Position numbers and translations under genes: made by a program. The notes under the pieces are model-generated. The model was not told where the DNA came from, ran no database searches, and was given only the letters and a program-made list of their open reading frames with translations. 49,025 nt of DNA from assembly GCA_949283135.1 (NCBI GenBank), contig CASDRM010000010.1:1-49025 (forward strand), read 5' to 3'. The DNA is from an uncultured Ruminococcus sp. Its GTDB lineage: Bacteria > Bacillota > Clostridia > Oscillospirales > Ruminococcaceae. Below are positions 33,260 through 36,284 of this stretch, piece by piece. Numbering within the stretch: the stretch's first letter is position 1; each line of letters opens with the position of its first letter.

Positions 33260-33916
33260 TCATACGAGCTGCTGGTCGTTTATTATCAGCCTGAACCTAA
33301 GACCAAGCTTTTGGGCTGCCTTGCGGCACATTATCATTCGCTCGAGGAAGATCTCGAAGTAGTCCATTATGGAGACCATATCGGCGTCTACCGAAAGCTC
33401 GAGAGTTATCTCAGCGCGCTTTTCATCTATTCTCAGGCTCGTTTCCGTTACCGAGTAGTTTACTCGGTCGTGGGCGTCAAAGGTGGATGGATCGGTGTTT
33501 CTTACTCTGCTTCTTCTTACGTCAGACTTGTCGGCTATTATAAGCGCGGCGGCAAGCGGGCTTACGGGCACTCCCGTTCCCTCGTCGTGATTGCCTATGG
33601 CGGTTGTGATCATCGCCGTTTCTTCCGCCTCAAAGCCCATCTTGTCGAGTATTCTGAACGCCATTACCGCTCCGCTCTGGCTGTGGTCGACTCGGTTGAC
33701 AAGGTTCCCTATGTCATGCAAAAACGCCGATATCTTCGAAAGCTCTATCAGTCTGTCCGGGTATCCCATGGTCTTGAGGATGTATTCGCATCTTTCAGCC
33801 ACAGTCGTGACATGGGCGAAGCTGTGCTCTGTGTACCCCAAAGCCTTGAGCGACGCGTCCGCCTGGGATATATATGTCCTGATCGAGTGGTCTTTTCTTA
33901 TCTGTTCGTAGGTCAT
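33260..33916 (-). CDS. HD-domain protein (probable phosphohydrolase)
   Basis: A 218-residue metal-dependent HD-superfamily protein. Ligand motifs in order: HSFAHVTTVAERC (first His), FLHDIGN (His-Asp pair), DHSQSGA, GNHDE, and DKSDVRR. The set resembles nucleotide or cyclic-nucleotide phosphohydrolases, but the substrate is not evident. The C-terminal 80 residues (SLRIDEKRAEITLELSVD..MDYFEIFLERM) form an alpha/beta extension seen in a Clostridial subgroup. RBS GAAAGG lies eight bases before ATG 33916. The mRNA has a leader of about 130 nt, with a promoter and palindrome at 34031-34083. Confidence 0.82.
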   Translation of the reverse strand: MTYEQIRKDHSIRTYISQADASLKALGYTEHSFAHVTTVAERCEYILKTMGYPDRLIELSKISAFLHDIGNLVNRVDHSQSGAVMAFRILDKMGFEAEETAMITTAIGNHDEGTGVPVSPLAAALIIADKSDVRRSRVRNTDPSTFDAHDRVNYSVTETSLRIDEKRAEITLELSVDADMVSIMDYFEIFLERMIMCRKAAQKLGLRFRLIINDQQLV

Positions 33917-34030: not shown

Positions 34031-34083
34031 TGTACATTTACATTGTACATACCATATTATATCCAGCGAGCTGCCCCTGTCAA
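34031..34083 (-). promoter_or_regulatory. Promoter and operator-like repeat of the HD-domain gene
   Basis: Minus strand: TTGACA (34078-34083), 16-nt spacer, TATAAT (34056-34061). Two TGTACA palindromes (34031-34036 and 34044-34049) spaced by 7 nt straddle the expected transcription start. Confidence 0.7.
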
Positions 34084-34156
34084 TCAGTTCTGCTTTTTAT
34101 TTTGACGCTCGGGAGAGCGTTTAAAACTTTTATGCAAAACGACAGTTTAAAAAAGA

Positions 34157-34185
34157 TTGACAAGACGGCTTGGTAATGCTATAAT
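34157..34185 (+). promoter_or_regulatory. Sigma-A promoter of the leu/ilv operon
   Basis: Perfect TTGACA (34157-34162), 17-nt spacer, TATAAT (34180-34185). Transcription should begin near 34192, at the head of the T-box leader. Confidence 0.9.
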
Positions 34186-34191
34186 GTCGTA

Positions 34192-34569
34192 AAGTATAAA
34201 AGCGATGACGAAGATCGGTCTATAGTCGGGCTGTTATCCAGAGAGCCGGAGCGTGGTGAAAGCCGGCAACAGACTCTATTGACCTCTCACTTCCGAGCCG
34301 GTTGCCTGAACGGCGGATGTTGTCCGCGCATTAGGGCTTCCCGTTACACTGCGTTAAAGTAGAGGGATTGTTTGATCCCGTAAAGGGGCAGCTTATCGCT
34401 GCAATTTGAGTGGTACCGCGAGTGCAGTATTTCAGTCGGCTCTGCCGGCACAGCCGTCGTTGGCTGTTCGCTTGCTTGCCTGCAACAGGTTGGGCATGGC
34501 GATGTGATTTTGATGTTGATGCACCCGTCTCAAAGCAAAACAGGGCTTTGGGACGGGGCTTTGTTTTAT
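34192..34569 (+). promoter_or_regulatory. T-box riboswitch sensing tRNA-Leu
   Basis: Leader that reads through when uncharged tRNA binds. Stem I lies at about 34203-34310, with the distal CAGAGAGCCGG...GGTGAAAGCCGGC part. The likely specifier is CTC (34286-34288), followed by the purine usually found there; another CTC frame at 34284 is possible. Further helices: GGGAT/ATCCC and GCAGC/GCTGC. The T-box core is GAGTGGTACCGCG (34408-34420). The bulge UGGU matches a tRNA with discriminator A, as tRNA-Leu has. The antiterminator pairs TTTGAG+GCG (34405-34420) with CGT+CTCAAA (34526-34534), leaving an unusually large 105-nt insert between its arms. Confidence 0.9.
34524..34569 (+). terminator. T-box leader terminator
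   Basis: CCCGTCTCAAAGC (34524-34536) pairs fully, with one wobble, with GCTTTGGGACGGG (34545-34557), followed by GCTTTGTTTT. Its left arm shares CGTCTCAAA with the antiterminator, so the two folds exclude each other. Confidence 0.88.
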
Positions 34570-34616
34570 ACAGGAAATCGTCCCGCACCAATTACGAATG
34601 TGAGGAGATTTTTACT

Positions 34617-36284
34617 ATGATGGATGCGACCAAGTACAAGGTGGGTTATTACCCGGCGCCCGGAGAGCACTTCAAATGGGTGAAAAAGGACAGGATAGAG
34701 AAGCCGCCGGTATGGTGCAGCGTAGATATGAGAGACGGCAACCAGAGCCTTGTAATACCCATGAATCTTGAGGAAAAGCTTGAGTTTTACAAGCTGCTGC
34801 TTGAGGTGGGCTTCAAGGAGATAGAAGTCGGCTTCCCCGCGGCGAGCGAGACTGAGTACGAGTTTTTGCGCACCCTTATCGACAACGGAATGATCCCGTC
34901 TGACGTGACGGTTCAGGTGCTGACTCAGTGCCGCGAGCATATTATACGCAAGACCTTCGAGGCTTGCAAGGGCGCTCCGTCGGCGATAATCCACTTCTAC
35001 AACTCGGTAAGCGTCGTGCAGCGCGAGCAGGTGTTCCGCAAGTCAAAGGAAGAGATAAAGAAAATAGCCGTTGACGGCGCGAAGCTTGTCAAGAAGCTCG
35101 CCTCGGAGTATGAGGGCAACTTCCGCTTCGAATATTCCCCCGAGAGCTTTACGGGCACAGAGCCGGAGTATGCTCTTGAGGTCTGCAACGCCGTACTTGA
35201 CGTTTTGGAGCCGTCTCCGACAAACAACGTGATAATAAACCTCCCTGTAACGGTAGAGATGAGTTTGCCTCATATATACGCCTCGCAGGTTGAATATATC
35301 AGCGAGAACCTCAAGTACCGCGAGTATGTCACCCTTTCGCTCCATCCGCATAACGACAGAGGAACAGGTGTCGCGGACACGGAGCTTGCGCTTTTGGCAG
35401 GAGCGGACAGGGTAGAGGGAACTCTCTTCGGAAACGGCGAGCGCACGGGCAACGTGGACATAATCACGCTTGCAATGAATATGTACTCTCACGGAATAGA
35501 CCCGGGACTCAACCTTTCAGATATGCCGCATCTTGTCGACGTGTATGAAAAGTGCACCAGGATGCATGTATACGAGCGTTCTCCGTATGCAGGAGCGCTT
35601 GTGTTCGCGGCGTTCTCGGGAAGCCATCAGGACGCGATAGCCAAGGGTATGAAGTACCGCGAGGAAAAGCAGCTTCACCAGTGGAACGTGCCGTATATTC
35701 CTATCGACCCGCACGATATAAACAGAACCTACGATGCTGACGTTATCAGGGTGAACTCCCAGAGCGGCAAGGGAGGAATAGGATATCTTCTGGAGCAGGC
35801 GTACGGCTACAGCCTCCCGCCCAAGATGAGAGAGGACTTAAGCTATCTTTGCAAGTCTATTTCCGACCATGAGCACAAGGAACTCAAGGCGGACGAGGTA
35901 TACGATATATTCAGGACTCACTACCTCCAGCTCGACAACGACATCGAGATAGCCGACATGAGCTTCACCCGAAGCGGAGATACGGTCAACACCTCGATAG
36001 AGTTTGTGTCCGGAGGAAAGAAGGAGACCGTGGAGGCGAGCGGAAACGGTTCGCTTGACGCCGTGAGCAACGCGCTCAAGAAGTACACCGGCAGCAGCTA
36101 TACTCTTTTGGATTATACCGAGCACAGCATGCAGGAAAAGGGTTCGGGAAGCGTGGCTGCGGCTTACATCGGATTAAGAAGTCCGAGCGGGAACATGAGC
36201 TGGGGCGCGGGAACGGACACAGATATCATTCACGCCAGCGCTCAGGCGCTTCTCAACGCGTTCCAGAACATGAACAACAGATAA
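34617..36284 (+). CDS. leuA: 2-isopropylmalate synthase, long (type 2) form
   Basis: First step of leucine synthesis: 2-oxoisovalerate plus acetyl-CoA gives 2-isopropylmalate. 555 residues, the long LeuA type of actinobacteria and fungi rather than the 510-residue enterobacterial type. Landmarks: WCSVDMRDGNQSL at the start of the DRE-TIM barrel (metal Asp), EVGFPAASETEYEF, LSLHPHNDRGTGVADTELALLAGADRVEGTLFGNGERTGN with the metal-binding His pair region, and a C-terminal alpha/beta domain (about 430-555) that mediates leucine feedback in the family. The frame runs upstream through the leader, but GAGGAG nine bases before ATG 34617 fixes the start. Controlled by the T-box. Confidence 0.93.
   Translation: MMDATKYKVGYYPAPGEHFKWVKKDRIEKPPVWCSVDMRDGNQSLVIPMNLEEKLEFYKLLLEVGFKEIEVGFPAASETEYEFLRTLIDNGMIPSDVTVQVLTQCREHIIRKTFEACKGAPSAIIHFYNSVSVVQREQVFRKSKEEIKKIAVDGAKLVKKLASEYEGNFRFEYSPESFTGTEPEYALEVCNAVLDVLEPSPTNNVIINLPVTVEMSLPHIYASQVEYISENLKYREYVTLSLHPHNDRGTGVADTELALLAGADRVEGTLFGNGERTGNVDIITLAMNMYSHGIDPGLNLSDMPHLVDVYEKCTRMHVYERSPYAGALVFAAFSGSHQDAIAKGMKYREEKQLHQWNVPYIPIDPHDINRTYDADVIRVNSQSGKGGIGYLLEQAYGYSLPPKMREDLSYLCKSISDHEHKELKADEVYDIFRTHYLQLDNDIEIADMSFTRSGDTVNTSIEFVSGGKKETVEASGNGSLDAVSNALKKYTGSSYTLLDYTEHSMQEKGSGSVAAAYIGLRSPSGNMSWGAGTDTDIIHASAQALLNAFQNMNNR

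What the first reader, a model, noticed from the sequence alone, without database searches (positions are those of the whole stretch)
34405..34534. T-box antiterminator with a 105-nt insert between its arms
The leuA T-box can be drawn exactly: TTTGAG-[TGGTACC]-GCG (34405-34420) pairs with CGT-CTCAAA (34526-34534), and the right strand is shared with the terminator. In known T-boxes the loop joining these strands is usually about 5-20 nt; here it is 105 nt (34421-34525). The insert has its own hairpins, such as ACAGCC/GGCTGT and CCTG/CAGG. It could stabilise the antiterminator, bind another factor, or be a mobile insertion.
Basis: partly seen in the sequence, partly recalled or inferred. Interest (0 to 1): 0.65.

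Follow-up and report, generated by a model that had tools for sequence, protein, structure and literature searches.

The report
Leucine T-box with oversized antiterminator cap
This is a normal leucine-sensing T-box RNA switch in front of the leuA operon of a gut bacterium, whose antiterminator hairpin carries an unusually large, self-folding tip that is probably a lineage-specific add-on rather than a new mechanism.

Summary
A class I T-box leader (Rfam RF00230, 76 bits) precedes leuA. The arms covary across 34 distinct leuA leaders.

The length is exceptional. The other leuA leaders measured have loops of 13-28 nt, except one relative with 58. In 295 genomes of the order, only this genome has a 91-120 nt loop in a strict pattern.

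The insert is single copy and matches no Rfam family. It is predicted to fold into three abutting hairpins in both states, leaving the arms' folding energy much as in short-loop relatives.

Best reading: an ordinary tRNA-Leu(GAG) T-box with a passive, lineage-specific helix A2 expansion. A2 insertions are already described for T-boxes (PMC7583486).

The parts
34157..34185 (+). sigma-70-type promoter TTGACA-17-TATAAT of the leuA leader
   Evidence: 12 of 12 consensus positions with TG before the -10
34196..34534 (+). class I T-box leader (Stem I to antiterminator); Rfam alone reports 34196-34446 because it misplaces the 3' arm
   Evidence: RF00230 76.0 bits, E 9.6e-17, below the gathering score of 93; not listed at gathering threshold
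34286..34288 (+). probable specifier codon CTC (Leu)
   Evidence: position by alignment of the leaders of relatives and Rfam alignment; tRNA-Leu(GAG) gene found in the same genome, ending ACCA; assignment inferred
34405..34410 (+). helix A1 5' strand TTTGAG
34411..34417 (+). T-box bulge TGGTACC; TGGT complementary to tRNA-Leu ACCA end
34418..34426 (+). helix A2 5' strand GCG, A.C mismatch, GTGCA
34427..34519 (+). apical insert, 93 nt, in place of a few nt in relatives
34435..34449 (+). insert hairpin H1
   Evidence: predicted
34450..34467 (+). insert hairpin H2
   Evidence: predicted
34468..34502 (+). insert hairpin H3
   Evidence: predicted
34520..34528 (+). helix A2 3' strand TGCAC, C, CGT
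34529..34534 (+). helix A1 3' strand CTCAAA
34524..34557 (+). intrinsic terminator, 13 pairs, followed by GCTTTGTTTT
   Evidence: (z -7.7)
34617..36284 (+). leuA (2-isopropylmalate synthase by reading and operon context), first gene of leuA-leuC-leuD-leuB-ilvB-ilvN-ilvC
   Evidence: ORFs, protein; gene names by reading, no family search run

Best explanation
It is a canonical transcription-terminating T-box that reads uncharged tRNA-Leu(GAG) and switches leuA between antiterminator and terminator. The 93-nt insert is a lineage-specific peripheral expansion at the tip of antiterminator helix A2. It folds by itself into three hairpins with no linker between them, in both states, and brings the arms together so that the switch energetics stay much as in short-loop relatives. 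Its most likely effect, if any, is kinetic: RNA polymerase must make some 77-92 more nucleotides between the T-box bulge and the deciding strand, which gives tRNA more time to bind. Shown: arms, terminator, covariation, length outlier, single copy where searched, cognate tRNA gene. Predicted: hairpins and near neutrality in energy. Inferred: passive role and kinetic delay.
For: T-box by Rfam. Perfect promoter and 13-bp terminator. Arm covariation in 34 leaders. tRNA-Leu(GAG) gene with ACCA end in the same genome. Loop 105 nt in the window and the sister genome, 58 in the next relative, 13-28 in 48 of 54 leaders; the one left over is the damaged leader L076. The expanded loops fall in one clade of the LeuA tree, support 94/89. 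H2 and H3 pair with probability 0.66-1.0 in ON and OFF contexts. Arms net -11.8 kcal/mol (-47.6 with hairpins, less -35.8 for the insert alone) against -9.8, -11.9 and -12.4 in three short-loop relatives. The 58-nt and 105-nt inserts have no detectable similarity: 731 of 2000 shuffles score as high.
Against: The insert has 0 substitutions between the two genomes while the region has 195 in about 5,580 bases, so selection on it is possible; but the whole stretch 34053-34642 has one substitution, so the insert does not stand out from its leader. Computed terminator preference is larger here (-8.1 kcal/mol) and in the 58-nt relative (-15.1) than in the other 18 leaders of that call (+2.8 to -6.6), so energetics may not be fully neutral. 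In the folded full leader H1 pairs only at 0.40-0.51. No expression data.
Confidence: 0.68

Rival explanations
1. The insert is a functional lineage-specific module, like the staphylococcal stem Sa: it contacts the tRNA acceptor arm or another factor and tunes the switch.
For: Insert identical in two genomes that differ at about 3.5% of sites locally; three compact hairpins; a review says lineage-specific insertions in T-boxes may contact tRNA.
Against: The next relative has an insert of different length without detectable similarity; the genus otherwise lacks it; fold only modestly better than shuffled (z -1.9); whole leader equally conserved.
Confidence: 0.15
2. The real antiterminator is closer to the core: GAG/CTC and CGA/TCG using 34435-34442, as the Rfam alignment draws it.
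For: Rfam places the 3' arm there.
Against: Ensemble energy -38.2 against -51.2 kcal/mol (minimum -35.6 against -49.5); pairing probability 0 before the true 3' arm is made; it does not overlap the terminator strand; short-loop relatives lack the sequence and keep the distal arms. The model has few positions for this loop, so it is forced.
Confidence: 0.03
3. The insert is a mobile or repeat element that landed in the loop.
For: Sudden appearance in one clade with no similarity to the relatives' loops.
Against: No second copy in the own genome, 31 genus or 197 family genomes, apart from the sister genome's same locus; weak genus hits of 24-30 bases at E 0.03-0.08 only.
Confidence: 0.07
4. The leader is decaying and the insert is debris in a dying switch.
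For: T-box score below Rfam's gathering score; terminator tail is not a clean U-run.
Against: Promoter, arms, extended A2, bulge and terminator intact and nearly unchanged between two genomes.
Confidence: 0.07

Closest known systems
Class I (transcriptional) T-box riboswitch, Rfam RF00230, leuA type
   Same: Stem I, specifier, T-box bulge, antiterminator and terminator sharing one strand, leucine operon
   Different: Antiterminator loop 105 nt against 13-28 in most related leuA leaders
Helix A2 insertions of translational T-boxes (described in PMC7583486, section 6.2 read)
   Same: Extra structure on top of the antiterminator, helix A2
   Different: Here in a terminator-type T-box with a long Stem I; no sequence relation tested
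Stem Sa of staphylococcal glyS T-boxes (PMC9495366 passages read; the original papers are not held)
   Same: Lineage-specific stem added in the terminator/antiterminator domain
   Different: Other lineage, other amino acid, three hairpins; whether the exact insertion point is the same was not checked

Membership tests
Class I T-box riboswitch (RF00230) | Covariance-model match | tested here: met
   76.0 bits, E 9.6e-17 over all 219 positions, but under the gathering score of 93
Class I T-box riboswitch (RF00230) | 7-nt bulge with UGGN complementary to the cognate tRNA's NCCA | tested here: met
   TGGTACC; tRNA-Leu(GAG) ends ACCA
Class I T-box riboswitch (RF00230) | Antiterminator helices A1/A2 conserved by covariation | tested here: met
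Class I T-box riboswitch (RF00230) | Antiterminator 3' strand shared with an intrinsic terminator | tested here: met
   34526-34534 inside 34524-34557
Class I T-box riboswitch (RF00230) | Specifier matching a tRNA of the regulated amino acid | tested here: met
   CTC by alignment; tRNA-Leu gag gene; codon position inferred
Class I T-box riboswitch (RF00230) | tRNA-dependent read-through | not testable with these tools
   needs an in-vitro transcription assay
Helix A2 insertion as a functional module | Insert structure kept by compensatory changes across species | tested here: inconclusive
   only two genomes carry it and they are identical there
Mobile or repeat element | Several copies | tested here: not met

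The most novel reading that the evidence does not exclude
The 93-nt three-hairpin cap is a selected control module on a transcriptional T-box: it times the termination decision or adds a tRNA or factor contact, which would extend the helix A2 insertions known from translational T-boxes to a transcriptional, leucine-specific switch.
Probability: 0.15. Interest if true: 0.55.

Novelty: new variant of a known kind. Interest (0 to 1): 0.3.

Why it matters
It gives a natural pair of switches, with and without a 93-nt cap at otherwise near-identical arms, to test whether T-box decisions are limited by the time between bulge and terminator strand. It also shows that model-based T-box annotation can draw the wrong antiterminator when helix A2 is expanded.

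Tried and rejected
Alternative antiterminator near the core: modelled and rejected. Mobile element: searched and rejected where searched. Common ancestry of the 58-nt and 105-nt inserts: not detected. A second RNA family in the insert: only the T-box reached E 1 in 34100-34620. tRNA-Leu(GAG) by DNA pattern gave two hits: one, L168, where ARAGORN finds no tRNA, and one that runs across the tRNA-Pro gene later found at that place; the gene was then found through the tRNA family. The first script on leader cores missed loci lying on the minus strand, corrected; one spurious core in L143 was dropped by the stricter pattern. Of 109 leuA loci, 54 gave a core; of the 55 without, 11 leaders were printed (which also printed L076) and the rest not examined. 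L076 was left out of the 34-leader alignment (damaged leader). H1/H2 probabilities used coordinates off by one and are replaced. A literature search on the organism's name was loosely set (either term) and tells nothing. Whether such a long loop in a transcriptional T-box is in print was searched only, in an open-access library; nothing of this length showed in the listings and passages seen, but key papers (Apostolidi 2015; Giarimoglou 2022) are not held.

Full report
What is there. The window is contig C10 of a 1.63-Mb draft genome, near Candidatus Faeciplasma pullistercoris: the LeuA protein is 99% identical to that record (L071). A T-box leader lies before leuA. At Rfam's gathering threshold it is not listed, but with an E-value cut it is the only hit in 34100-34620: RF00230, 76.0 bits, E 9.6e-17. 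A perfect TTGACA-17-TATAAT promoter stands at 34157-34185 and a 13-pair terminator at 34524-34557. The genes downstream read as leuA, leuC, leuD, leuB, ilvB, ilvN, ilvC (ORFs, named by reading; no family search was run).

The arms. In 109 leuA loci (some genomes appear twice), 54 gave a T-box core by pattern. On 34 distinct ones aligned (L076 left out) the proposed pairs form in 95.8% of cells. Three A1 pairs switch from U-A to A-U on both sides in 7 leaders, one A2 pair switches from G-C to A-U in 2, and 9 of 14 pairs have two-sided changes. None of 500 shuffles reaches the covariation score, and sliding the partner by 1-3 columns gives 35-60% pairing. The A2 helix goes on beyond an A.C mismatch by GTGCA/TGCAC in the window. 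The five columns of this extension pair in 34, 34 and 29 of 34 leaders, then in 30 of 33 and 19 of 30 that have letters there. So the loop proper is 93 nt rather than 105.

How unusual. In 295 genomes drawn from the order, the strict pattern GAGTGGTACCGCG-gap-CGTCTC was found with a gap of 0-30 in 170 genomes, 31-60 in 7, 61-90 in 2 and 91-120 in 1, the own genome. One of the 7 (G218) and both of the 2 start at an element that already has a shorter gap, so they repeat a downstream word and are not long loops. The pattern sees only T-boxes with GAG/CTC arms, and the sister genome and the 58-nt relative were not in this sample. The own genome has a second T-box with a 31-nt gap.

History. In a tree of 22 LeuA proteins from the genus the 105, 105 and 58-nt leaders form one clade (support 94/89), next to a 14-nt leader. 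The two inserts show no detectable similarity (731 of 2000 shuffles score as high). The insert has no other copy in 31 genus genomes at E 0.1 apart from the sister's (four weak hits of 24-30 bases in other genomes), nor in 197 family genomes at E 1e-4. Between window and sister, 195 substitutions are spread over about 5,580 bases, yet only one lies in 34053-34642 and none in the insert. That shows a conserved leader, or local exchange, but does not single out the insert.

Folding. The isolated antiterminator domain folds into the proposed arms plus three hairpins that abut without linkers (34435-34449, 34450-34467, 34468-34502). With the terminator included, the terminator pairs at 0.99-1.0 and H2 and H3 remain (0.68-1.0); in the full leader H1 falls to about 0.4-0.5. 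The insert by itself is only modestly more stable than shuffled sequence (z -1.9, 9 of 200). Energy of arms plus hairpins is -47.6 and of the insert alone -35.8 kcal/mol, leaving about -11.8 for the arms, against -9.8, -11.9 and -12.4 in three short-loop relatives. Against neutrality: in 21 leaders the computed preference for the terminator is -8.1 in the window and sister and -15.1 in the 58-nt relative, against +2.8 to -6.6 in the other 18. These are nearest-neighbour predictions without tRNA.

The refuting alternative. Rfam draws the 3' arm at about 34435-34446 inside the insert. Enforcing that arm costs about 14 kcal/mol (minimum -35.6 against -49.5), its pairing probability before the true arm is made is 0, and it leaves the terminator strand free. 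I read it as an effect of a model with a short loop.

Specificity. The specifier is most likely CTC at 34286-34288, by alignment of the leaders. The genome has tRNA-Leu(GAG) (L195), whose encoded 3' end is ACCA, complementary to TGGT of the bulge.

Comparison with what is known. A review (PMC7583486; passages and section 6.2 read) states that translational T-boxes often carry insertions in helix A2, on top of the antiterminator, and that T-boxes have unexplained insertions in every domain. [quoted passage not shown] The TBDB paper (PMC7778990, passages) gave no loop-length statistics in what I saw. So the kind is known; the size, the leucine-specific transcriptional setting and the lineage are the new part.

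Verdict. A true and rare length outlier in an ordinary switch. The likely role is passive, with a possible timing effect: 77-92 extra nucleotides compared with the 13-28-nt loops.

Noticed in passing
L076:2350-2470: A related leuA leader has a T-box core and terminator right behind a promoter, apparently without Stem I and with a changed A2 strand: it looks like a truncated or differently working T-box.
   Followed up: partly
L072 upstream of leuA: The next relative has its own 58-nt antiterminator loop and an enlarged terminator loop, so this lineage seems to lengthen both hairpins.
   Followed up: partly
L093 and L112 upstream of leuA: A RidA-like reading frame (by eye) sits between the T-box and leuA; several other relatives show a similar frame directly before leuA.
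   Followed up: no
34364-34379: An extra small hairpin GGGATTGTTTGATCCC before the antiterminator region: its core GGGATTGTTTGATCC is kept in the leaders of relatives and it falls partly in an insertion of the Rfam model.
   Followed up: no
34056-34083, minus strand: A second perfect promoter-like site points away from leuA, towards the reading frame 33260-33916.
   Followed up: no
G000:C80:16769-16818: A second T-box of the same genome has a 31-nt antiterminator gap.
   Followed up: no
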